This document shows positions 1,164-16,760 of a DNA stretch of 64,000 bases, piece after piece. The stretch spans positions 1 through 64,000 of the forward strand of contig CANGIZ010000002.1 in NCBI GenBank assembly GCA_947454025.1, read 5' to 3'. The notes beneath the pieces were generated by a model. That model did no database searches and had not been told where the DNA came from. It worked only from the letters and a program-made list of their open reading frames with translations. Position numbers and translations under genes: made by a program. This stretch comes from Bacteroidota bacterium (GTDB lineage: Bacteria > Bacteroidota > Bacteroidia > Chitinophagales > Chitinophagaceae). Each line of letters begins with the position of its first letter. Positions within the stretch are counted from its first letter, which is position 1.

Positions 1164-1468
1164 TGCCCCAGGCGGGAATCGAACCCGCACGGGCGTTGCG
1201 GCCCACAGGATTTTCTTACTACTATGGTTTTCACCACCCTACACCGGTTTGTAGTCTGGACTATGCCTTCACCATATCTTTCGATTTAGGTGCTCCGTGT
1301 CTAGTCTCTACACGTTCCCTTTCGGGCTTCGCTCGGCATTCCCATTTTAAAGGGTTCGCCGAATTTACGGAGTTCTACATCTTCAATTTCTCGAAGCGCA
1401 CTCAAATTCTTGTTCTCCTAAAGAACAGTGTCTAAGTCCTGCGTGTCTACCAGTTCCACCACCAAGGC
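1164..1468 (-). tRNA. tRNA-Leu(UAA) interrupted by a group I intron
   Basis: 5' exon GCCTTGGTGGTGGAACTGGTAGACACGCAGGACTT (1434-1468) and 3' exon AAAATCCTGTGGGCCGCAACGCCCGTGCGGGTTCGATTCCCGCCTGGGGCA (1164-1214). Joined, they give a CAGGA-CTTAAAA-TCCTG anticodon arm (UAA), a long variable arm, T-arm and acceptor. Confidence 0.9.
1215..1433 (-). other. Group I intron (IC3-like) in tRNA-Leu anticodon loop, U^AA position
   Basis: Inserted after U34 and ends in G. Contains group I core-like strings: Q-like AATGCCGAGCGAAGCC, R-like GTGTAGAGACTAGACACGGAGCACC, S-like GAAGGCATAGTCC. P7 can form GACTA/TAGTC; P8-like CACC...ATC-GAAA-GAT...GGTG. Confidence 0.9.
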
Positions 1469-1483
1469 GTCTATTGAAAGACT

Positions 1484-4834: not shown

Positions 4835-5128
4835 CTAAGCAATCTTAAGTCTTTTTATCCTATTAAATTGATCTCCTTTTTCCAATAGCTCTTCTTCGAT
4901 ATCAAAATCGTTTTGTAAGCCTAGCCAAAAATTTGGAGTATTTCCAAAGTATTTTGCCAATCTTAAGGCAGTATCGGCTGTAATGCTTCTATTCCCTTTT
5001 ATTATTTCTGAAATTCTAGTTTGTGCAATATCAGTTTCCTTGCAAAGGCGATATGCACTTATATTTAATGGTATTAGAAACTCTTCTTTTAATACTTCTC
5101 CCGGATGTATGTTTTTTATCTTTTTCAT
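4835..5128 (-). CDS. higA: HigA-family antitoxin (XRE HTH)
   Basis: IHPGEVLKEEFLIPLNISAYRLCKETDIAQTRISEIIKGNRSITADTALRLAKYFGNTPNFWLGLQNDFD is typical HigA. Confidence 0.92.
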   Translation of the reverse strand: MKKIKNIHPGEVLKEEFLIPLNISAYRLCKETDIAQTRISEIIKGNRSITADTALRLAKYFGNTPNFWLGLQNDFDIEEELLEKGDQFNRIKRLKIA

Positions 5129-5137
5129 AATAGTGAA

Positions 5138-5419
5138 TTAATGGTAGTCAATTATTTGAATGTTTTCAACGTTTTCATTTATCCAAATAAATATGATTCT
5201 CCATTTATTATTAATTCTTATAGAATAATATGCCGACAAATCACCTTTTAACTTTTCTAACTTATTGGAAGGTGGTAAGGAAAGATCCTTAATATTTTCA
5301 GAGCGATGGACCATTCTTAACTTCCTTCTTGCGATTGCCTGAATTGATGCTGGTAATTTTTTTGAAAATTCACCTTGCCAAATTTTAAGCGTTTCTTTAT
5401 TCCCAAAACTTAGTATCAT
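5138..5419 (-). CDS. higB: HigB-family toxin (RelE superfamily)
   Basis: 93 aa; LSLPPSNKLEKLKGDLSAYYSIRINNKWRIIFIW; directly upstream of higA. Confidence 0.9.
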   Translation of the reverse strand: MILSFGNKETLKIWQGEFSKKLPASIQAIARRKLRMVHRSENIKDLSLPPSNKLEKLKGDLSAYYSIRINNKWRIIFIWINENVENIQIIDYH

Positions 5420-5670: not shown

Positions 5671-5705
5671 TAAAAAAAGCCTCTCAACTTTCGTTGAGAG
5701 GCTTT
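5671..5705 (-). terminator. Terminator originally belonging to tRNA-Cys
   Basis: taaaaaaagcctctcaactttcgttgagaggcttt, the same hairpin as the tRNA-Leu terminator at 1129-1163. Followed by a tRNA-Cys 3' remnant. Confidence 0.75.
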
Positions 5706-6042
5706 GTATCGAGGTCCCGAGCGGGTCACATTTAAATTATTTAAACTCAATAATATCAAGGATTTTGGCATACTTAATAGTTATTAGTTACCTAAAAAGA
5801 CACCAATTGGCTTTATAAATTCTCTATTCAGATAACAATACTAAGTTACCAAAAACTATGCAAATAATCAAAAAATAACACATATAAAAAAGTACTAATT
5901 AATGTGTCTAGTGAAATGTTTTTAGCCGTAAAACCGTTCAAGTTGGCTCTCATACTTGACAAAAAAATTAGTACAAAGTACAATATATATGTATATAAAA
6001 TCCCCCATTTATAAAGACCTAGCTAATTTTTAACAAGAATTG

Positions 6043-6315
6043 TTACTTGAAAAATAATGTTAATTTAAAAAGTTCTTTAACTCTTAGGTAATTTTCAACT
6101 TTCAGATTATAGTAGAAACACAATCTATAATTGAGCCTAACAGCATCTTCCAAATACTCGTTTCTTTTACCATTTAGATATCTAAATTGCATAAGTTCTT
6201 CATAGCACTGATCCATTAAGCCTTCTAGGTCTCCGGAAGCTTCTTCAAAATGTTCTAATATTCCATCTAATTCTTCTTCAGAGAATGAATCGCTAATTGG
6301 TCCATCGTATTTCAT
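6043..6315 (-). CDS. Hypothetical 90 aa protein
   Basis: ORF downstream of and co-directional with the 1422-aa gene; acidic N-terminal half. Confidence 0.55.
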   Translation of the reverse strand: MKYDGPISDSFSEEELDGILEHFEEASGDLEGLMDQCYEELMQFRYLNGKRNEYLEDAVRLNYRLCFYYNLKVENYLRVKELFKLTLFFK

Positions 6316-6332
6316 AAATGAAAATTTAAAAA

Positions 6333-9300
6333 TTATAATTTTTTCTCTTGTGCCAACTTGAGCAGCATTAACTCTATCCTATTTAACCTTTCTTTTAATT
6401 CTGTGTTTTCTTTGCTTAACTCCTGAATTGACTTAACCAAAACTGGCATCAAGTTACCATAAGTAGCCTCCCATTTATTGGGGGTGGCTTTATAGACTAA
6501 TTTAAGCCAATCTGCTTTAAACTTGTTCTGAGATTCGTCTAACTCTTGGGCAATGAACCCAGCATTTAATTCTCTCCCGATTTTGCTTCCATCAGATTTG
6601 CCATCATGATACCACTCTCTTTTATCCCAATTAAAAATTCTTGGCTTCAATGAGTTTATAAAATCCAATCCAACTGTCAAATCTTGTATGTTTTTCTTGT
6701 CTCTTCTATCAGAAAGAGAAGTAATGTTTTGAACATTTGATCTGATTGTAGTAATTGAACTATTCCCAAGTGTAACTTCATTTGAAACATTGTTTCCAGA
6801 GGCAGTTGCACCATAACCGATAACTATATTATTATTTCCAGTCATTAGACTTGCACCTGCATTATCTCCAATTACAACGTTATAATTTCCGGTTGTATTA
6901 CTATATAATGAATATCCCCCAATTGCCACATTACGACTTCCAGTTGTATTATTAAACAAAGCATCCATTCCAATACCATTATTTAAATTACCTGAAGTAT
7001 TTCTAGCAAGAGCCGCTAATCCAATTGCTGTATTTTGTGCCCCAGTTGTATTATCATGTAAGGTAGAAGCTCCAATTGCCGTATTTTGGGCTCCAGTTGT
7101 ATTCAAGTTTAACGCAGTGTGACCTAATGCGCTATTGGCCCAACCTGAAGTATTATATGCAAGTGTATTACTACCAACTGATGTGTTTTCTTGACCAATT
7201 GGCAGAGTACCTACAATGTTGCTAATTAAAGCATTTTTACCGATAGCTGTATTTGAGGTATCTGCTCCACCACCTCTACCAACAATTAATGAATTAACTT
7301 TTAAATCAAATGCACCTAAATCAACTGCTTGAGTTGCTCCTGTATAAGGAACCCCAGAAGTTACAGAAGTTGAAACCGTTCCGTCTGCCATTAAATACTG
7401 GTTTGAAGTTCCTGCTAATATTTTGTAACCAGAAGCTAATATTGTTCCAGAAGTTTTCACGTCAGTTATATTTGCATCACCTAGTTGTATTGTATTTGAT
7501 GTTGCTACTAAGCTATTAGCTCCAATAGCAGTTGAATTGGAAATTGTACCACTAAATACATCTGCTGAATAACCAATCAATGTGTTATTATTCCCTGTGG
7601 TATTTGATAATCCAGATGAAAGGCCAATTGCTGTATTGTTATTCCCAGTTGTGGTTCTATTTAAAGAATAATAACCTACTGATGTATTATTGTTTCCATT
7701 ACTATTTTTAAGTGCGCCATTCCCAAATGCACTATTATTGATTCCGGTTAAATTATAAAATAATGATGTCACACCAAATGCTGAATTTCTATAACCTGTT
7801 GTATTACTAAATAAAGAAAATAAGCCAAATGCACTATTATCAAACCCCGTAGTGTTTGAAACTAAAGATTGATAACCTAACGTAGAATTTTCATTACCAG
7901 ATATATTGTTCTGCAATGCACCTGGACCAACTGCAGTATTCCAATAACCAACTGTATTATTCTGCATACTTGCAGATCCAACCGAGACGTTTTCATATCC
8001 AGTAGAATTAGAAAACATAGAACTTGAACCAATAGAAGTATTGTTGCTACCAGTTGTATTAGATGTCAAAGCATAGCCGCCTACACTAGTATTATTTGAA
8101 CCTGTCGTTGTCCCAAATTGAGAATATGTACCTATAGCAGTGTTAAAATTTGAAGTTGTGTTACGAGTTAATGACTGCATTCCTAAAGCAACATTATAAG
8201 ATCCAGTTGTATTTTGATATAAGGCTAAAGATCCACTGGCAGTATTTCCAACACCAGTAGTGTTAGAATATAAAGTACCTGACCCAAAAGCCCCATTAAA
8301 ATTCCCAGTAGTGTTAGAATATAAACTAGCTACACCTAAAGCCCCATTATTATTCCCAGTTGTATTGTGTATTAATGAATTGACCCCAATAGCAGTATTA
8401 TCTGAGCCGGTTGTATTATCCCTTAAACTCATGGTTCCAACTCCAGTATTTGTATTTCCGGTTATATTTGAAACCAATGCGCTATCTCCAACAGCAGTAT
8501 TCTGAAACCCAATTGTATTGGATGCAAGACTATAAACACCTAATGCACTATTAGAATAACCAGTTGTATTTGAATAAAGTGAATTAGTTCCCAATGCGAT
8601 ATTATTAGAAGCAGTAGTATTGTTATAAAGACTTTGGTAACCTATAGCAGTATTATTACTACCTGTAGTATTATAGAACATTGAATTCGAACCTAAAATT
8701 GAATTAAAGCTACCAGTTGTATTAAAAAATGAACTACTAGTTCCTATTGAAGTATTATCATGACCAATTGTATTCGAATATAATCCACCCATCGCAACTA
8801 AATTATTACCTGTTGTATTCGCTCTTAAAGTTCTAAAGCCTATTGCAATATTAGCATTAGCCTGATTGTTTAATAATGCCTCTACACCAACAGCAACATT
8901 TTCTCGGCCATCAGTATTGCTATTTAAAGCCTTATATCCTATTGCTAAATTTTCAATACCAGTAGTGTTATTTTGAGAAGCTTGATATCCAATAGCTGTA
9001 TTATAAATACCACTTATATTGCTATTTAACGACTGGAATCCAATTGCTGTATTATTTGTAACTGAAGCAGTTCCAGCTCCGATCCCTATTGTTAGCCCAT
9101 TTACTTTTAAATCATATGCACCCAAATCAACTGCCTGACTAGCACCAGTGTATGGCACACCAGCAGTTACTGATGTGGTTACAGTTCCATCTGCTCTCAA
9201 ATATTGCGTTGATGTTCCATTAGGAACTTTAAACCCAGCAGCAGTTACTGCGCCATTAGTTTTTACATCCGTTATGTTTGGATCCCCTAGTTGAATCTGA

Positions 9301-10601
9301 TTGCTCGCAGTTACTTGTGCGTTGTATCCAACTGCAGTTGAATTTGAAATTGATTGAAGAGTCGATCTAGTTAGTGCACCTAATAAAGTTACTTTCGAAG
9401 CAGTGGTTAAGGTATTACCCGAAAATGAGCCAACCGCAACGTTATCATCTCCATTATTATTTTGCAATGAATTAAAACCAATTGCGGAATTTCTAACTCC
9501 GATTGTATTTTTATTTAAGGATAATGCACCAACAGAAACATTTCCAAACCCTTCAGTATTATTTTGGAAACTATGAGATCCGATTGAAGTGTTTGAATAA
9601 CCAATAGTATTACTAACCATTGAAGATTTACCTATTGCAGTATTTCTAAAACCATCTGTATTAGAAGAGAGTGCACTATCGCCAATTGCGGTATTACTAA
9701 CTCCAGTAGTATTTGTAAAAAGGGATTGAAAACCTACTGCCGTATTATATCCACCATTAGTATTTGATTTAAGCGACTCAAAACCTATCGCTACATTTCT
9801 AATGCCAGTAGTATTATTTAAAAGCGCATTGTTACCGACCGTAGTATTCGATGTGTTACTCGAAGTTCCTGAACCAATTCCAATTGTCAACCCACTGACT
9901 TTTATGTCATTTGTAAAATTGGAATTACTAACTGCCATTTTACCATCGATTCTACTAGATAAACTAGCTGTGTCAGAATAGTTAAATTTTGAATTAATTC
10001 TATTTGATAAACTAATTGTATCACTTTTATTAAGCTTTGTGTCTAAACTTGCTTGGGTTAAAGTAGAAATCGGCTTATCCAAATCTGCTGTATTATTCAC
10101 TTTATCAATAGTAAGAACTACTTTCAAATCACTTATACTAGCAACACCAGTTCCTCCCGATTTAACAGGAAGAATACCAGCCACATTTACTGCATCTACA
10201 CCATTACTATAGTATGAATAAGGGACAAATTGTAAAGGAGTTGTTCCCATTGTAATAAAATTTATCCCACCTGTTGGGTCCATCTCAACTTTCAGATATT
10301 TGTTACTCAATTTCCAATTCACATTTGAGTAATTGCCAATGGCTGATATTACTCCTGTATCTCCTATCACTACAGAAAATATACCTTGTGCATTTGTTAG
10401 AACATTTCTTGTTTCGATATAATCAGGATTACTTGTATTTGTTCCAGTTAAGATTGAAAGCTTTAAAGAAATCTTTTGACTTGCAAGTATTGTTCCGTTT
10501 GCACTTCTAGCAACTCCTTGAAAGTTAATGCCCTGCGAGTTGCCCACATAACTTATCATCAAAAACACATACACAACTATTGATTTTAGGATCCATTTCA
10601 T
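6333..10601 (-). CDS. Giant repetitive fiber-like surface protein with C-terminal S74-like intramolecular chaperone domain
   Basis: Signal peptide; INFQGVARSANGTILASQKISLKLSIL N-domain; dozens of NTTGxxNTAIGxxSLxxN repeats resembling YadA-type head repeats; C-terminus SDRRDKKNIQDL...NAGFIAQELDE...YGNLMPVLVKSIQELSKENTELKERL. Confidence 0.88.
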   Translation of the reverse strand: MKWILKSIVVYVFLMISYVGNSQGINFQGVARSANGTILASQKISLKLSILTGTNTSNPDYIETRNVLTNAQGIFSVVIGDTGVISAIGNYSNVNWKLSNKYLKVEMDPTGGINFITMGTTPLQFVPYSYYSNGVDAVNVAGILPVKSGGTGVASISDLKVVLTIDKVNNTADLDKPISTLTQASLDTKLNKSDTISLSNRINSKFNYSDTASLSSRIDGKMAVSNSNFTNDIKVSGLTIGIGSGTSSNTSNTTVGNNALLNNTTGIRNVAIGFESLKSNTNGGYNTAVGFQSLFTNTTGVSNTAIGDSALSSNTDGFRNTAIGKSSMVSNTIGYSNTSIGSHSFQNNTEGFGNVSVGALSLNKNTIGVRNSAIGFNSLQNNNGDDNVAVGSFSGNTLTTASKVTLLGALTRSTLQSISNSTAVGYNAQVTASNQIQLGDPNITDVKTNGAVTAAGFKVPNGTSTQYLRADGTVTTSVTAGVPYTGASQAVDLGAYDLKVNGLTIGIGAGTASVTNNTAIGFQSLNSNISGIYNTAIGYQASQNNTTGIENLAIGYKALNSNTDGRENVAVGVEALLNNQANANIAIGFRTLRANTTGNNLVAMGGLYSNTIGHDNTSIGTSSSFFNTTGSFNSILGSNSMFYNTTGSNNTAIGYQSLYNNTTASNNIALGTNSLYSNTTGYSNSALGVYSLASNTIGFQNTAVGDSALVSNITGNTNTGVGTMSLRDNTTGSDNTAIGVNSLIHNTTGNNNGALGVASLYSNTTGNFNGAFGSGTLYSNTTGVGNTASGSLALYQNTTGSYNVALGMQSLTRNTTSNFNTAIGTYSQFGTTTGSNNTSVGGYALTSNTTGSNNTSIGSSSMFSNSTGYENVSVGSASMQNNTVGYWNTAVGPGALQNNISGNENSTLGYQSLVSNTTGFDNSAFGLFSLFSNTTGYRNSAFGVTSLFYNLTGINNSAFGNGALKNSNGNNNTSVGYYSLNRTTTGNNNTAIGLSSGLSNTTGNNNTLIGYSADVFSGTISNSTAIGANSLVATSNTIQLGDANITDVKTSGTILASGYKILAGTSNQYLMADGTVSTSVTSGVPYTGATQAVDLGAFDLKVNSLIVGRGGGADTSNTAIGKNALISNIVGTLPIGQENTSVGSNTLAYNTSGWANSALGHTALNLNTTGAQNTAIGASTLHDNTTGAQNTAIGLAALARNTSGNLNNGIGMDALFNNTTGSRNVAIGGYSLYSNTTGNYNVVIGDNAGASLMTGNNNIVIGYGATASGNNVSNEVTLGNSSITTIRSNVQNITSLSDRRDKKNIQDLTVGLDFINSLKPRIFNWDKREWYHDGKSDGSKIGRELNAGFIAQELDESQNKFKADWLKLVYKATPNKWEATYGNLMPVLVKSIQELSKENTELKERLNRIELMLLKLAQEKKL

Positions 10602-10603
10602 GA

Positions 10604-11128
10604 CTAAAGCTTGATAATTTTATAAATTCCCGTTTTAATTTTTCCTGCAATTGGCTTAAAATAAACCTGAATATAATATTGTCCAGAAGCAAAATTTGAC
10701 ATATTGACTTGATTTTGCATAGAACCAAATGTTGTAAAACTTGGACTTCGGTAAAATATCCTTGATTCTAGATCAATAATTTGATATTGTAGCTGCCCCC
10801 CGCTGCTTAAATCAGAATTCAAGTGCGCTATAGTATTAACAGGATTAGGAGTTATATTTATTTCGTTAATGCCAAATGGAGTATATATTTCATTAATTCC
10901 GGTTACTAGTGGAGGATTTTCTTGCAAAAATCCACTACTTAAACTAACGCCACTAGTGCTATTGAAATTAGTAATTGAGATTGTTTCCCCTGTACTAATA
11001 GTCAATGAAAATCCATTTTGCGTACCTGACAAACCTCCAATATTTAAAGTAAAAGGTGAAATCGTCTGTGACTTCCCATTTATAAAAACAGTGCCTATCA
11101 ATAAAAGAGATAGTAAAAATGATTTCAT
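10604..11128 (-). CDS. Secreted protein with T9SS type A sorting-domain-like C-terminus
   Basis: Signal peptide MKSFLLSLLLIGTVFINGKSQ; INITPNPVNTIAHL...FASGQYYIQVYFKPIAGKIKTGIYKIIKL. Confidence 0.75.
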   Translation of the reverse strand: MKSFLLSLLLIGTVFINGKSQTISPFTLNIGGLSGTQNGFSLTISTGETISITNFNSTSGVSLSSGFLQENPPLVTGINEIYTPFGINEINITPNPVNTIAHLNSDLSSGGQLQYQIIDLESRIFYRSPSFTTFGSMQNQVNMSNFASGQYYIQVYFKPIAGKIKTGIYKIIKL

Positions 11129-11389
11129 CTTAAAATTGTCTAAAGTTTTAAAATACTTAATGGACTCAATTATTAAAGAAACGCTGATATCGAGTTATTT
11201 AAAATTAACTCGTCAATAACAAAACGACTACAAATGCGACGAAGTATTAGACTATTTTAGGTTAAATATCTAAATGAATAAAATCTTATTTAAAATATTG
11301 ATTTACAATAAAATACAAATTAGTTATATACTAAATAACAAACCTAATACTGTTGAAATAATTATTAACTTCGAGTTTTATCCAACCTA

Positions 11390-12769
11390 ATGAAACAAGT
11401 ACTTACTATTACAGGCATAATACTCTGTTTTGCAGTTTCCTTTTCACAGTCAACTTCAAATAACAAAGGATTAGACGTATTATCACTATCAAATCAATCA
11501 ATCCAGATTTTCGGTAAGCTTAGAACTTCCAAGTACTTGTCATTGGCAAAGCCATTCAATAACCACATTCAAACTATTATTAAGTCAGATAGTGGCATTT
11601 TCTGTCTCGTTGACGGAACTGGAATGCTTTACAAACTATCTAAATCTGATGGTCAATTCAAAAGAGTAGACTCAACTCTTTTTTGGGGTTACAACCTTGG
11701 TGCATTCCCGTTTACTTATAAAACGGAGATCTACAATTTAGGTGGCTCTGGCTTATGGAGAAGTAATGGACACTTACGTAAATTTAATTTTAAAGCCCAT
11801 GAATGGGATATTGTTCCCCTTAATGAGGAAGTGTCAGTCATTTCAAGCGACAAAGCTGGTTTGGTCTATTATGATCAACAAACTGGAAAAATTTACTCCG
11901 GCTATTCATACAATATTAATGATGGGATTAAACCTGATTCCAAAGGTCCCGAATATTACTACAAAGTAATGTGCTTAAATCTGGCAACTAATGAATGGAG
12001 CTACCTAGGTGAATTGAATTCAAATCTGATTGATGATATCAAATCAGAGTACAATATAGCAGCTACGCCAATTGGACTCCTAACATTAAACAATACAAAT
12101 CTTAGCCTCTGGGACTTCAAAAACAATCAACATTACCAATTGAATGATGCAAAAGGTGTATTTCAGTCAATAAAAAGAGGAATCGATACAACACTTGTTT
12201 TTTACAAAGACAACCAACTATATTTAAGCAGAGGAACAAACAATCTGGATTCAATCAAGTTAACTATTGACGATTTCCATTTAGCCGGCACTATATACTC
12301 AACTTCATTATTAACAATACTTAAACCTTATAGAAAGGCTATTTACATCCTCATTGTTGCACTTATTTTGATGTCTGGATATCGAGGTCTGATTGCATAT
12401 AAAAGGTCCGTAATAAGCAAATATGAGGCGCAGGCCTTAGCTGAAAAAGAAACCTTAGATGTGTCAATTAAGTTGTTTACTGATCAAGAGCTGCTATTAC
12501 TAAATTTACTCATTTCTAATAGCTCGAAAGGTGCAAAAACCAACATTAATGACATTAATGATTTCTTAGGCTTTGCCCATATGTCTATAGATACGCAAAA
12601 GCAGCAACGACATAATCTTATCACAAGCATCAATAAAAAATACCTAAACAAGACAACAAGAAACTTGATTCAAAGAGAGAAGCTGGAGTTCGATAAAAGG
12701 TCCTTTGTCTACTTTATATTTGAAGATGAACTTTCAATACTTCCAAAGTATATTCCCAAGGATGTTTAA
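11390..12769 (+). CDS. Membrane-anchored sensor/regulator-like protein (periplasmic kelch-like region, one TM, cytoplasmic helical domain)
   Basis: 459 aa; signal peptide, periplasmic repeats, TM AIYILIVALILMSGYRGLIAY, cytoplasmic FTDQELLLLNLLI...QKQQRHNLITSINKKYL... . Confidence 0.65.
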   Translation: MKQVLTITGIILCFAVSFSQSTSNNKGLDVLSLSNQSIQIFGKLRTSKYLSLAKPFNNHIQTIIKSDSGIFCLVDGTGMLYKLSKSDGQFKRVDSTLFWGYNLGAFPFTYKTEIYNLGGSGLWRSNGHLRKFNFKAHEWDIVPLNEEVSVISSDKAGLVYYDQQTGKIYSGYSYNINDGIKPDSKGPEYYYKVMCLNLATNEWSYLGELNSNLIDDIKSEYNIAATPIGLLTLNNTNLSLWDFKNNQHYQLNDAKGVFQSIKRGIDTTLVFYKDNQLYLSRGTNNLDSIKLTIDDFHLAGTIYSTSLLTILKPYRKAIYILIVALILMSGYRGLIAYKRSVISKYEAQALAEKETLDVSIKLFTDQELLLLNLLISNSSKGAKTNINDINDFLGFAHMSIDTQKQQRHNLITSINKKYLNKTTRNLIQREKLEFDKRSFVYFIFEDELSILPKYIPKDV

Positions 12770-12851
12770 TTGAAGTTATGAATGTGTAGTAAATTGATAC
12801 TAAAGTGATGTAAGGAATGCAAACAATCTACTTTGTCTCTTTATGACTTAA

Positions 12852-13082
12852 TCATTTTAAACAAGCTTGATTCCAAATATCCATTTTTTGTCTTCTTCCT
12901 CCACTTAGCAATGATTTGAAAAACTTTATTTGATTATTCATTGTCAACAAGGCATACCGAGCTTTATCCATAGCACCCTTATTTAGCTTAATCAAATTAA
13001 CTACGATCTGAGTTAATTGAATGAGAATAGAAAGTGATAGATTGGATAGCTCATTATATGATCGCACCCTTCGTAAGATCAA
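12852..13082 (-). CDS. Small hypothetical protein, possibly a remnant
   Basis: 76 aa basic ORF; an in-frame TTG start would extend it upstream. Confidence 0.3.
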   Translation of the reverse strand: MILRRVRSYNELSNLSLSILIQLTQIVVNLIKLNKGAMDKARYALLTMNNQIKFFKSLLSGGRRQKMDIWNQACLK

Positions 13083-13558
13083 TTGTTTTACAACAATACT
13101 GGGATCAAACTAAGCTTATAGGCTTTTCTATATTCACCTAGTCAGCAGAATCATAATCGGTTTTATGTAGAAGCCTTACCAGTGAAGACTGTGCATTTTG
13201 ACCCAGTTGTCAGTCGGACGACATTGCCGGGATTAACCGTTGATGAACTAATTTACTTTACGAATAAAGCGCCAATGAGTTGAGTAAGGATTTCCATTTC
13301 CTTAAGCAGTCAAGTTTTAGCCAACACTGCTTTTATGTAATAATAATTAGTAAGAGATTGCACAAAACGTATCCAGAAAAACAATTAACTTTCCCCAAAT
13401 CATTCACAATAGCCATTTAAAATTCAAAACAGCTAAAAATGAGATACGTTTTGGCAACCCCCTACTACGCTTTGCCAATATGTCAAAGAACTTTTTGTAA
13501 GCGCAACATTATTTGCCGGTTACTCTTCGAATTGATTTTTATCTATTAAAATGATTTT

Positions 13559-13945
13559 TTAGGAAGCACTTAGGGTTATTCTTTGGAGTTCAGCTAAGCT
13601 TATTTCATACGCTAAAAAAGAGTCAAAAGCACGTTTGTAAACTTCAATGTATTCAGCTTCCAACCCTAGATTTATTGCATTTTCATACAAACGCATTGAT
13701 AGCCCAACGATAAACTTGTAGTTCACTTCATCATAATGACGATATCCATCTTTATTGTAAACACAAGCAACCTGCTCTTTCTCAATACCCTTTTGCTCAT
13801 AGTAATCAACTAGATAATGAAATATGGCTTTCCTTGTCCATTCCCTTATTACCCAGTCTTGTTTGTTATTTTCGAGTCTTGTTATAAATTGATTCATCCC
13901 ATCTTTAAACTCTTCAAAGTCGAAATTTGGCTTGTAAATGATCAT
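13559..13945 (-). CDS. Hypothetical protein of the integrase module
   Basis: 128 aa; 2-bp gap to the upstream HTH gene, co-directional with the integrase. Confidence 0.6.
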   Translation of the reverse strand: MIIYKPNFDFEEFKDGMNQFITRLENNKQDWVIREWTRKAIFHYLVDYYEQKGIEKEQVACVYNKDGYRHYDEVNYKFIVGLSMRLYENAINLGLEAEYIEVYKRAFDSFLAYEISLAELQRITLSAS

Positions 13946-13947
13946 AA

Positions 13948-14247
13948 TTATTGATTTGAATTGTTAGTGAATTGGGTTTTGTTTCTTTCAAGCATTGCAT
14001 TTACATCGGACTGGTAATAGAAGTAGATCCCGCCAACTTTAGTGTAATTAAGGTGGCCATTGTTTCTTAAATTTTCAATGGTGCTATCGCTGATTGCAAG
14101 TTGTTTTTTCAGGTCCTTTGACTTAAGGATTTTGTACTCTTGCATACCAGATTGCTTAGGAAGCTTATTTTCAAGTTCCTTTAATAGATCGTTTTTGAAT
14201 TGGTTTAACATCTCTTGGATGTCTGACTGATCGTACATTGTTTTCAT
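13948..14247 (-). CDS. HTH (helix_turn_helix_17 / excisionase-like) DNA-binding protein
   Basis: LKSKDLKKQLAISDSTIENLRNNGHLNYTKVGGIYFYYQSDVNAML. Confidence 0.85.
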   Translation of the reverse strand: MKTMYDQSDIQEMLNQFKNDLLKELENKLPKQSGMQEYKILKSKDLKKQLAISDSTIENLRNNGHLNYTKVGGIYFYYQSDVNAMLERNKTQFTNNSNQ

Positions 14248-14248
14248 A

Positions 14249-15466
14249 TTATAAATTGTTTGATGATTTACTTGTATGGTTGCCGAAAATGGCTTTTAGA
14301 GCACCGAAATCGTCCTCTACTTTCTGAGAGGATACCTTGCTATAAATTTGAGTTGTCTTGATGCTAGCGTGCCCTAATGCCCTAGAAATCGTCTCCATGG
14401 GCACTTTGTTATTCACAGCTATACAAGCAAAAGAATGCCTCCCAATGTGGCAGGTTAACGACTTATTTAAACCTGCTTCTTTAACAACATCCTTTAAAGC
14501 TTGATTCATTTTTTGATTTGATGGCACTGGGAATGATTTGCCTTTATACTTTGCTGCCGGATTGTTCTCATACCTTTCAATTAACATCCTTGCGTTTGGT
14601 AAAATAGAGATAATGCAATCTTCGTTTGACTTCTGTCTAGAAATTCGGATTAGCTTCTTTTCACTATCAATATTTTCAGGTGCAAGATTCTTAAGATCTG
14701 AGTAACTCAATCCAGTGTATACCATAAAACAAAACAGATCTCTAACTATGGCCAAGCGTTGATTATCTTTAAAGTCCAATGACATAATTTTATCTACTTC
14801 CCCTATAGTTAATGTTATTCGTGTCGTAGGAGCCAGCTTGATTTTGTACTTTCTTGTTGGGTCGGATTCAATCCAATCTAGCTTAAGGGACATATTAATA
14901 ACCGCCCTGATTCGTTTAATATGCTTTGCAATAGTATTGGTTTTGTTGCCTCGAAACTTGCTTAGATAGGTGCTATAAGATGTCAGAAATTCATAGTTGA
15001 CGTCTTGCAGGTTTGCATTACTTTGCTTGTATTGCTTCCTTATAAACGACTCTAAGATACCCTTATCGGCCTTATAGTGGCAGATAGTATCTTTGTTGTA
15101 CTGATCCTTATTGGAGTCTATAAAAAATTGAAAAGCATCCAACAACTTTTTTGCTTCTACATTGTTTTCGTTGCCTTTTAGAAATGCCTTAACTGAAGCA
15201 TTTGTGACTTCCTTATTCAGCATTCCCATTTTGCCAACATAAGCCCAAAAGTCCTTTTCCTTTTGTTGGATGATACTATTAAGATGTAAGGACTGAGGAT
15301 GAGTAGATTTAAACCTGAACTTGTTTTCATCCCAATACTTGGGATCCTCTGAAATATTCATTGAAAGGTTTATCTCGTTCCCAATCCCATTGATTCTCAT
15401 GTAGATGGGTGCCTTACCTAAACCGTTCATTTTTGATTTAATCTGATAAAAGTTAACTTTTAACAT
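14249..15466 (-). CDS. Tyrosine recombinase/integrase
   Basis: Catalytic motifs VYTGLSYSDL, CHIGRHSFACIAVNNKVPMETISRALGHASIKTTQIYSKV. Confidence 0.95.
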   Translation of the reverse strand: MLKVNFYQIKSKMNGLGKAPIYMRINGIGNEINLSMNISEDPKYWDENKFRFKSTHPQSLHLNSIIQQKEKDFWAYVGKMGMLNKEVTNASVKAFLKGNENNVEAKKLLDAFQFFIDSNKDQYNKDTICHYKADKGILESFIRKQYKQSNANLQDVNYEFLTSYSTYLSKFRGNKTNTIAKHIKRIRAVINMSLKLDWIESDPTRKYKIKLAPTTRITLTIGEVDKIMSLDFKDNQRLAIVRDLFCFMVYTGLSYSDLKNLAPENIDSEKKLIRISRQKSNEDCIISILPNARMLIERYENNPAAKYKGKSFPVPSNQKMNQALKDVVKEAGLNKSLTCHIGRHSFACIAVNNKVPMETISRALGHASIKTTQIYSKVSSQKVEDDFGALKAIFGNHTSKSSNNL

Positions 15467-15717
15467 CGTGAAATTTTGTTTAGTACATATATAAATATCA
15501 GAGTGGAAGACAAAAAATGGCTAAATCGAAAAAAACTTTAAAATAATTTAAATAGTATGTTAATAGGAATTGTGGATGGATCCCGTTAGTTACCCAATTG
15601 GTTACCAAATAACATTAAGATTTATGCCAGATAAAGGATTCAGGGAGGCTTGGAAACAAAAAATGCCAGTAATCTAGGATGATTACCAGCATTAATTGTA
15701 TTATAAAAACATACGTG

Positions 15718-15788
15718 AGGTCCCGAGCGGATTCGAACCGCTGTAGAAGCTTTTGCAGAGCTCTGCCTAGCCACTCGGCCACAGGACC
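15718..15788 (-). tRNA. tRNA-Cys(GCA)
   Basis: GGTCCTGTGGCCGAGTGGCTAGGCAGAGCTCTGCAAAAGCTTCTACAGCGGTTCGAATCCGCTCGGGACCT; anticodon loop CTGCAAA, discriminator U. Confidence 0.93.
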
Positions 15789-15884: not shown

Positions 15885-16760
15885 ATGTCGACAATTGGAG
15901 CATCGGAATTGATCATTAATGATCGTGGAGCAGTTTACCATCTAAATGTAAGGCCAGAGGAATTAGCAGATACGATTATAACAGTGGGTGACCCAGAAAG
16001 AGTTGCCACAGTTAGTAAATATTTTGACCGCATTGAACACAAATGTGCGCATAGAGAGTTTATTACACATACTGGATATATTGGCAATAAAAGAATCTCT
16101 GTTTTAAGTACCGGAATTGGCCCCGACAATATCGACATTGCGCTTAACGAAGTAGATGCCTTAGCAAATATCGATTTTGAAACACGCACTATAAAAGAGC
16201 AGAAAAAATCTGTTTCAGTTATTCGTATGGGCACTTGTGGGTCATTACAAGGCGAAGTGGGCGTAGATCAATTGGTTGCAGGAACACATGGTCTTGGCAT
16301 TGACAATTTGCTACATTTTTACAAGCTCAATAATAATTCCGAAGAACAATCTATATTAACTGCATTCGAACAACATACCCAAATTACAAACCATAAAATA
16401 CAGCCTTATATTGCCAGTGCAAGTGCGGGGTTAATTAAGCACTTTGCCGACGGATATAGTCATGGCATTACGGTTACCTGTCCTGGATTTTATGGTCCGC
16501 AGGGACGTATTTTAAGGCTGCCATTAAGTATGCCCAATCTGGTGGACCAGATGACAAGTTTTAGATATGGCAACCATCATATTGCTAACTTTGAAATGGA
16601 AACCAGTGCCATTTACGGGTTGTGTAATTTATTGGGGCACCAATGTTTGAGTATTAATGTTATTGTTGCGAATAGAGTGAAGAAAGAATTTAGTAAAGAT
16701 CCAGCGAAAGCGGTGGAAAATATGATTCAAAAATCATTAGGCATTATTGCATCTATTTAA
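15885..16760 (+). CDS. Nucleoside phosphorylase (uridine phosphorylase-like)
   Basis: VGDPERVATVSKYFD, STGIGPDNIDIALNEVDAL, NFEMETSAIYGL. Confidence 0.88.
   Translation: MSTIGASELIINDRGAVYHLNVRPEELADTIITVGDPERVATVSKYFDRIEHKCAHREFITHTGYIGNKRISVLSTGIGPDNIDIALNEVDALANIDFETRTIKEQKKSVSVIRMGTCGSLQGEVGVDQLVAGTHGLGIDNLLHFYKLNNNSEEQSILTAFEQHTQITNHKIQPYIASASAGLIKHFADGYSHGITVTCPGFYGPQGRILRLPLSMPNLVDQMTSFRYGNHHIANFEMETSAIYGLCNLLGHQCLSINVIVANRVKKEFSKDPAKAVENMIQKSLGIIASI

What the first reader, a model, noticed from the sequence alone, without database searches (positions are those of the whole stretch)
5711..15730. ~10 kb integrative element in tRNA-Cys that displaced the tRNA terminator
Seen: gaggtcccgagcgg occurs within the tRNA-Cys 3' end (15717-15730) and again at 5711-5724, about 10,006 bp away. 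The integrase and HTH genes lie at the tRNA-proximal end. Next to the distal copy is a terminator (5671-5705) identical to the one abutting tRNA-Leu, at comparable spacing. Inference: the ancestral tRNA-Cys ended at this terminator and the element inserted between them. No transfer or replication genes were recognised, so it looks like a small cargo-type or mobilised-in-trans element.
Basis: partly seen in the sequence, partly recalled or inferred. Interest (0 to 1): 0.75.

Follow-up and report, generated by a model that had tools for sequence, protein, structure and literature searches.

The report
tRNA-Cys island that swaps terminators
A 10-kb mobile DNA island has inserted itself into the end of a cysteine-tRNA gene, pushing that gene's natural stop signal to the island's far end and supplying its own stop signal instead, a design that its relatives across the Bacteroidota share at an almost fixed position.

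Summary
The 14-bp repeat (5711-5724, 15717-15730) is exact and not chance. Nine sister species carry the predicted empty site, terminator-TATC-GAGGTCCCGAGCGG(A/G)TTCGAACC. In the better-assembled contigs the flanking synteny matches and the integrase and cargo are absent. So a 10-kb element sits between tRNA-Cys and its former terminator.

The element carries its own 13-bp intrinsic terminator (15662-15693), centred 38.5 nt past the tRNA 3' end. Relatives of its tyrosine integrase in the genus sit, co-directionally, at Arg, Ser, Asp, Lys and Phe tRNAs. Where both ends were resolved (seven loci) the displaced terminator lies beside the distal repeat. Across Bacteroidota, 50 of 55 tRNA-seated relatives carry an element-borne terminator hairpin (shuffles 2.6%), and in 53 of 63 non-redundant cases it is centred at +36 to +42.

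Terminator displacement is already published for ICEKp1, ICEclc and ICEEc1, so the element is a new member of a known kind. The fixed-distance replacement hairpin appears undescribed in the library searched.

The cargo is a surface-protein module. No relaxase or replication gene was found. Related islands carry DRT2, IetAS, HipA-like or RND-efflux genes.

The parts
15717..15788 (-). tRNA-Cys(GCA), the integration target, intact after integration
   Evidence: ARAGORN, Rfam RF00005 58.5 bits
15717..15730 (-). proximal 14-bp direct repeat (att core), inside the tRNA 3' end
   Evidence: exact match; attB context in sister species
5711..5724 (-). distal 14-bp direct repeat, the displaced tRNA-Cys 3' fragment
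   Evidence: exact match; joined to TATC and the terminator as in the empty sites
5676..5705 (-). displaced host terminator of tRNA-Cys
   Evidence: 13-pair terminator scan hit; same hairpin-TATC position abuts tRNA-Cys in nine sister species
15662..15693 (-). element-borne replacement terminator hairpin, 23-54 nt past the tRNA 3' end
   Evidence: scan; -19.8 kcal/mol, z -5.9; same position in relatives
15586..15607 (-). proximal arm: two GGTAAC repeats, candidate arm-type integrase sites
   Evidence: role inferred
5784..5792 (-). distal arm: GGTAACTAA, candidate arm-type site, 68 bp from the core
   Evidence: role inferred
5842..5850 (-). distal arm: GGTAACTTA, candidate arm-type site
   Evidence: role inferred
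14249..15466 (-). tyrosine integrase, 405 aa
   Evidence: Phage_integrase 8e-21, Phage_int_SAM_5, Arm-DNA-bind_5
13948..14247 (-). HTH_17 protein, 99 aa, possible excisionase or directionality factor
   Evidence: HTH_17 3e-7; weak match to excisionase family TIGR01764, below cut-off
13559..13945 (-). 128-aa protein of unknown function
   Evidence: no Pfam or NCBIfam match
11390..12769 (+). 459-aa protein; signal peptide and one membrane segment by inspection; possible regulator of the surface module
   Evidence: only weak Pfam matches; homologues in 71 of 101 genomes of the genus
10604..11128 (-). 174-aa secreted protein with T9SS-type C-terminal tail
   Evidence: Por_Secre_tail 6e-6, just under the cut-off
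6333..10601 (-). 1,422-aa repetitive surface protein with C-terminal Peptidase_S74 domain
   Evidence: Peptidase_S74 4e-10
6043..6315 (-). 90-aa protein of unknown function
   Evidence: no match

Best explanation
This is a 10-kb integrative genomic island inserted by its own tyrosine integrase at the 3' end of tRNA-Cys. Recombination between a 14-bp tRNA fragment on the excised circle (attP) and the tRNA (attB) rebuilt an intact tRNA and left the old 3' fragment and the old terminator at the far end (shown by comparison with empty sites). The element carries a replacement intrinsic terminator centred about 38 nt beyond the tRNA (shown as sequence). Most likely this hairpin ends the tRNA transcript and insulates the integrase gene from the tRNA promoter, which favours stable residence (inferred). 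The displaced host terminator now lies downstream of the minus-strand cargo genes and may end their transcripts (inferred). Integrase binding to arm sites on both sides of the core would drive integration, with the HTH_17 protein as a possible directionality factor (inferred).
For: Exact repeat, chance about 0. Empty attB in nine species with conserved flanking genes and no hit to element genes. Intact integrase ORF with the expected domains. Replacement hairpin, z -5.9. Relatives of the integrase at other tRNAs with the same layout. Displaced terminators beside the distal repeat in seven loci resolved at both ends, one a tandem. 50 of 55 relatives across Bacteroidota carry a terminator within 90 nt of the tRNA against 2.6% in shuffles and 3 of 55 upstream of the tRNA. 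Hairpin centre median +38.5, quartiles 37.5 and 39.5. Five of five more in viral contigs. Shared arm motifs at both ends.
Against: No excision, circle or transcript was seen; only one assembled genome carries this element. The near-constant distance of the hairpin from the tRNA is tighter than termination alone needs. The directional U-tract bias is only moderate (8.8 T after against 6.7 A before the stem).
Confidence: 0.85

Rival explanations
1. The hairpin is mainly a part of the attachment site (a binding or structural element for the integrase, the excisionase or a host factor), and ending the tRNA transcript is secondary.
For: Its centre keeps a near-constant distance from the tRNA end while the distance to the integrase varies from 161 to 683 bp.
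Against: It has the form of an intrinsic terminator with a U-rich tail on the tRNA strand, and it appears just where the host terminator was removed. A short spacer that holds the second core half-site could fix the distance without any role of the hairpin.
Confidence: 0.2
2. As in ICEKp1, the tRNA promoter drives the integrase after integration and the hairpin only attenuates it.
For: Same order and direction of tRNA and integrase; in ICEKp1 the displaced terminator leads to tRNA-integrase co-transcription that stem-loops attenuate (PMC13023037).
Against: A strong terminator lies between them in the window and in most relatives. ICEKp1 is only distantly related, and no transcript data exist here.
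Confidence: 0.25
3. The segment is a prophage remnant or phage satellite.
For: Size, integrase and tRNA site would fit; some relatives at other sites carry primase- or VapE-like genes, and relatives of the integrase occur in viral contigs.
Against: No phage structural, packaging or replication gene by Pfam or NCBIfam; PHROGs was not run. The S74 domain also occurs in cellular surface proteins, and this one has a secretion signal by inspection.
Confidence: 0.06
4. There is no element: the 14-bp match is coincidence or an old relic, and the genes are ordinary chromosome.
For: Homologues of the cargo genes exist elsewhere in the genus without this integrase.
Against: Empty sites with the same junction in nine species; no hit to element genes at those sites; chance expectation about 0.
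Confidence: 0.02

Closest known systems
ICEKp1, ICEclc, ICEEc1 (PMC13023037)
   Same: Insertion at a tRNA 3' end moves the tRNA terminator to the far end of the element; integrase gene downstream of the tRNA in the same direction; stem-loops between the two
   Different: Those are large conjugative elements of Proteobacteria whose integrase is transcribed from the tRNA promoter; here the element is 10 kb, of Bacteroidota, without transfer genes, and has one strong intrinsic terminator at a near-constant distance from the tRNA
Riemerella anatipestifer 10K genomic island (PMC6764341)
   Same: 10-kb island of a Bacteroidota member at a tRNA gene (Arg), single tyrosine integrase, excision and integration shown by experiment
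   Different: Its published 53-bp repeat lies downstream of the tRNA and itself contains a terminator-like hairpin, so the terminator would be duplicated rather than exchanged
NBU1/NBU2 mobilizable units of Bacteroides (review PMC5704250)
   Same: Tyrosine integrase, 3' end of a tRNA gene (Leu, Ser)
   Different: NBU1 and NBU2 encode a MobP relaxase and are mobilised by ICEs of the CTnDOT/CTnERL type; no relaxase was found here
tRNA-seated genomic islands as catalogued in Islander (PMC4383910)
   Same: Regenerated tRNA gene at one end and displaced tRNA fragment at the other
   Different: The paper's text does not mention terminators

Membership tests
tRNA-seated genomic island | intact tRNA at one end and displaced 3' fragment at the other | tested here: met
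tRNA-seated genomic island | site-specific integrase encoded inside | tested here: met
tRNA-seated genomic island | uninterrupted attB in related genomes | tested here: met
   nine species
tRNA-seated genomic island | excision as a circle with attP | not testable with these tools
   needs reads or PCR
Integrative and conjugative element | conjugation genes (T4SS, coupling protein, relaxase) | tested here: not met
   no such Pfam or NCBIfam match in the element's ten or so ORFs
NBU-type mobilizable element | own relaxase (MobP) | tested here: not met
   no relaxase match
NBU-type mobilizable element | transfer origin usable by a helper element | not tested
   no search for an oriT was made; about 790 bp without a clear gene remain
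Prophage or phage satellite | phage structural, packaging or replication genes | tested here: not met
   none by Pfam or NCBIfam; PHROGs not run
ICEKp1-type terminator displacement | host tRNA terminator moved to the distal end of the element | tested here: met
ICEKp1-type terminator displacement | integrase transcribed from the tRNA promoter when integrated | not testable with these tools
   no transcript data; the hairpin at 15662-15693 argues against strong read-through

The most novel reading that the evidence does not exclude
A phylum-wide integrase family of Bacteroidota carries a conserved hairpin locked about 38 nt from the tRNA end that does two jobs: it replaces the displaced tRNA terminator, and it is a spaced part of attP needed for recombination or its control.
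Probability: 0.2. Interest if true: 0.65.

Novelty: new member of a known kind. Interest (0 to 1): 0.46.

Why it matters
tRNA genes are common seats of genomic islands, and this kind of insertion removes the tRNA's own terminator. This family shows a recurrent solution: the island brings a new terminator at a near-fixed distance. That would explain how such insertions can stay harmless to the tRNA and how the integrase could be kept quiet. It also gives a simple signature (tRNA, hairpin at +38, paired repeats, integrase; terminator-capped tRNA fragment at the far end) for finding both ends of small islands in draft Bacteroidota genomes, some of which carry anti-phage defence genes.

Tried and rejected
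Close relatives of the integrase outside the genus: a single-sequence scan found none, so an alignment was used. A Bacteroidota-type promoter (TANNTTTG) upstream of the integrase: none found on the integrase strand, and the pattern is not above chance in L001. The idea that all related islands are defence islands: rejected, since cargo also includes RND efflux, a fatty-acid desaturase and HipA-like genes. The idea that the altered tRNA-Cys end (GAGGTCGAGAGCGG) in four species is an insertion scar: rejected, since the 5' side of the acceptor stem differs in the same species too. HigBA (4835-5419) as part of the element: it lies outside the repeat, and no HigA or HigB hit was found at the sister loci. 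Paper searches for an earlier description of terminator replacement in Bacteroidota found nothing closer than ICEKp1; coverage of the library is partial. A column-shuffle control of the hairpin alignment failed to compute, so covariation rests on pair counts and partner shuffles, with hairpins selected for pairing.

Full report
Observation. The 14-bp string GAGGTCCCGAGCGG is present exactly at 5711-5724 and 15717-15730 and nowhere else in the window even with two mismatches (shuffle mean 0.01). The right copy is the 3' end of tRNA-Cys(GCA), 15717-15788 minus. The hairpin at 5676-5705 is identical over 30 bp to that at 1133-1162 beside tRNA-Leu. In the whole genome this sequence occurs only at these two places and at C72:138-167, beside a partial second copy of the tRNA-Leu gene.

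Empty sites. The gene right of tRNA-Cys (phosphorylase-like, 15885-16760) was used to fetch the locus in relatives. In nine other species of the genus (L010, L011, L012, L013, L014, L016, L020, L021, L024) the sequence reads hairpin-GGCTTTGTATC-GAGGTCCCGAGCGG-(A/G)TTCGAACC, with small variations in the hairpin. In the contigs that reach far enough the order rocD, 128-aa gene, tRNA-Cys, phosphorylase, dapF is kept, and no hit to the integrase, HTH, S74, T9SS-tail or 459-aa genes is found. The window's left junction matches attB through TATC plus the repeat and diverges at 5725; the right junction matches from 15717 rightwards. The element is therefore the segment between the repeats, spacing 10,006 bp. 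G034, whose phosphorylase is 91% identical, has a different integrase-bearing region next to the same tRNA, so the site may be reused.

Replacement terminator. Between the tRNA 3' end and the integrase the element carries AATGCTGGTAATC-loop-GATTACTGGCATT-TTTTG on the tRNA strand (15662-15693): 13 pairs, -19.8 kcal/mol against a shuffle mean of -7.2, z -5.9. It starts 23 nt past the tRNA.

The integrase family. The protein has Arm-DNA-bind_5, Phage_int_SAM_5 and Phage_integrase domains. In 100 other genomes of the genus the best relatives are only 41% identical. Sixteen of the inspected loci have a tRNA next to the integrase: Arg, Ser, Asp, Lys or Phe. In each, and in the window, the integrase lies downstream of the tRNA in the same direction, 161-451 bp away. 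A script finds an intrinsic terminator in that gap in 15 of 17. The two near-identical Arg loci (L037, L038) show the same kind of hairpin by eye. Where both ends could be found (window, G104, G118, G108, G085, G088 and G035, the last with a tandem), the distal tRNA fragment of 13-24 bp is followed by a terminator-like hairpin (by eye). An alignment search of GTDB genomes gave 80 loci; 55 have a co-directional tRNA within 700 bp, and 50 of these carry a terminator within 90 nt of the tRNA. Shuffled sequence gives 2.6%, and the 90 nt upstream of the tRNA 3 of 55. Of 9 of these loci with a distal repeat of at least 13 bp, 7 have a displaced terminator within 80 nt, starting 0-9 nt after the fragment. 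Element sizes from that call are biased because the loci reach only 10 kb. In 63 non-redundant hairpins the centre is at +38.5 (median; quartiles 37.5 and 39.5), 53 of 63 lying within 36-42. The window's hairpin sits at the median. The stem shows many compensatory changes, although hairpins were selected for pairing, so only position and frequency are free of that bias. Five of five further tRNA loci in viral contigs have such a hairpin, three of them centred at 38-39.5 and two near +51.

Attachment arms. The two ends share a motif in direct orientation: GGTAAC(T/C)(A/T)A at 15586, 15598, 5784 and 5842. Relatives show other motifs in the same layout, for example TAATCGTTGTC in G108, TTAGTGACCT in G085 and TGTTTCAA/TTCAACAA in G104 and G118, with a distal copy about 63-78 bp from the core. 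These are probably arm-type integrase sites (inference).

Cargo. A 1,422-aa repetitive protein ending in an S74 domain, a 174-aa protein with a T9SS-type tail, a divergent 459-aa protein and a 90-aa protein. The three larger genes have homologues elsewhere in the genus, and in G061 all three lie together in a 14-kb stretch without a tRNA or an integrase hit. The island probably picked up a chromosomal surface-protein module (inference). No relaxase, replication or phage structural gene was seen. Relatives at other tRNAs carry a DRT2 reverse transcriptase (E 2.6e-117), IetAS (E 4.6e-301 and 2.1e-157) and a dGTPase, or HipA-like, DUF5906/VapE-like, Toprim and RND-efflux genes.

Mechanism. Shown by sequence: integration at the tRNA 3' end, tRNA restored, terminator displaced, another terminator supplied. 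Inferred: this terminator ends the tRNA transcript and shields the integrase; the old terminator now serves the minus-strand cargo genes that run towards it; HTH_17 may act as excisionase. The near-constant distance from the tRNA end, while the distance to the integrase varies (161-683 bp), suggests that the spacer or the hairpin also matters to the attachment site.

Relation to known work. Terminator displacement, with stem-loops upstream of the integrase, is described for ICEKp1, and displacement also for ICEclc and ICEEc1 (PMC13023037). A 10-kb island at tRNA-Arg with proven excision is known in Riemerella anatipestifer (PMC6764341); its published 53-bp repeat itself contains a terminator-like hairpin, that is, duplication rather than exchange. 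NBU1 and NBU2 use tRNA-Leu and tRNA-Ser ends but carry MobP (PMC5704250). So the element is a new member of a known kind; the fixed-distance replacement terminator of this family is the new point.

Noticed in passing
window 1165-1475 (-); intron about 1215-1432: tRNA-Leu(UAA) split in the anticodon loop by a group I intron of about 218 nt (Rfam RF00028, 42.8 bits, E 1e-9, under the gathering score of 50). In the genus it is patchy: over 20 of 100 genomes have intron sequence at 94-99% identity, often cut at contig ends, while others, including the close relative G034, have the uninterrupted tRNA. The site (U34/A35 by inspection) is the one I recall for cyanobacterial and plastid trnL introns; no paper on such an intron in Bacteroidota was found.
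   Followed up: partly
window 4835-5419 (-): HigB/HigA toxin-antitoxin pair just outside the distal repeat, with no hit at the same place in sister species; the stretch between the 128-aa gene and tRNA-Cys varies from about 60 to 2,270 bp among relatives and holds different genes.
   Followed up: partly
L072 (G034), 7594-14174: The same tRNA-Cys in a close relative is followed by a different region with a 517-aa tyrosine integrase pointing towards the tRNA and a terminator 3 nt from the tRNA; its far end lies beyond the contig.
   Followed up: partly
L098 (G035), tRNA-Asp locus: Two tRNA-Asp 3' fragments (23 and 24 bp) at 17.6 and 19.8 kb from the tRNA, each followed by its own terminator: a tandem or repeated insertion.
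   Followed up: no
L080 (G104) and L095 (G118), tRNA-Asp loci: Two islands of about 10 kb with near-identical integrases and the same core genes but different defence cargo: DRT2 in one, IetAS plus a dGTPase in the other.
   Followed up: partly
window 12770-13558: About 790 bp inside the element without a convincing gene; it may hold a decayed gene or an undetected transfer origin.
   Followed up: no
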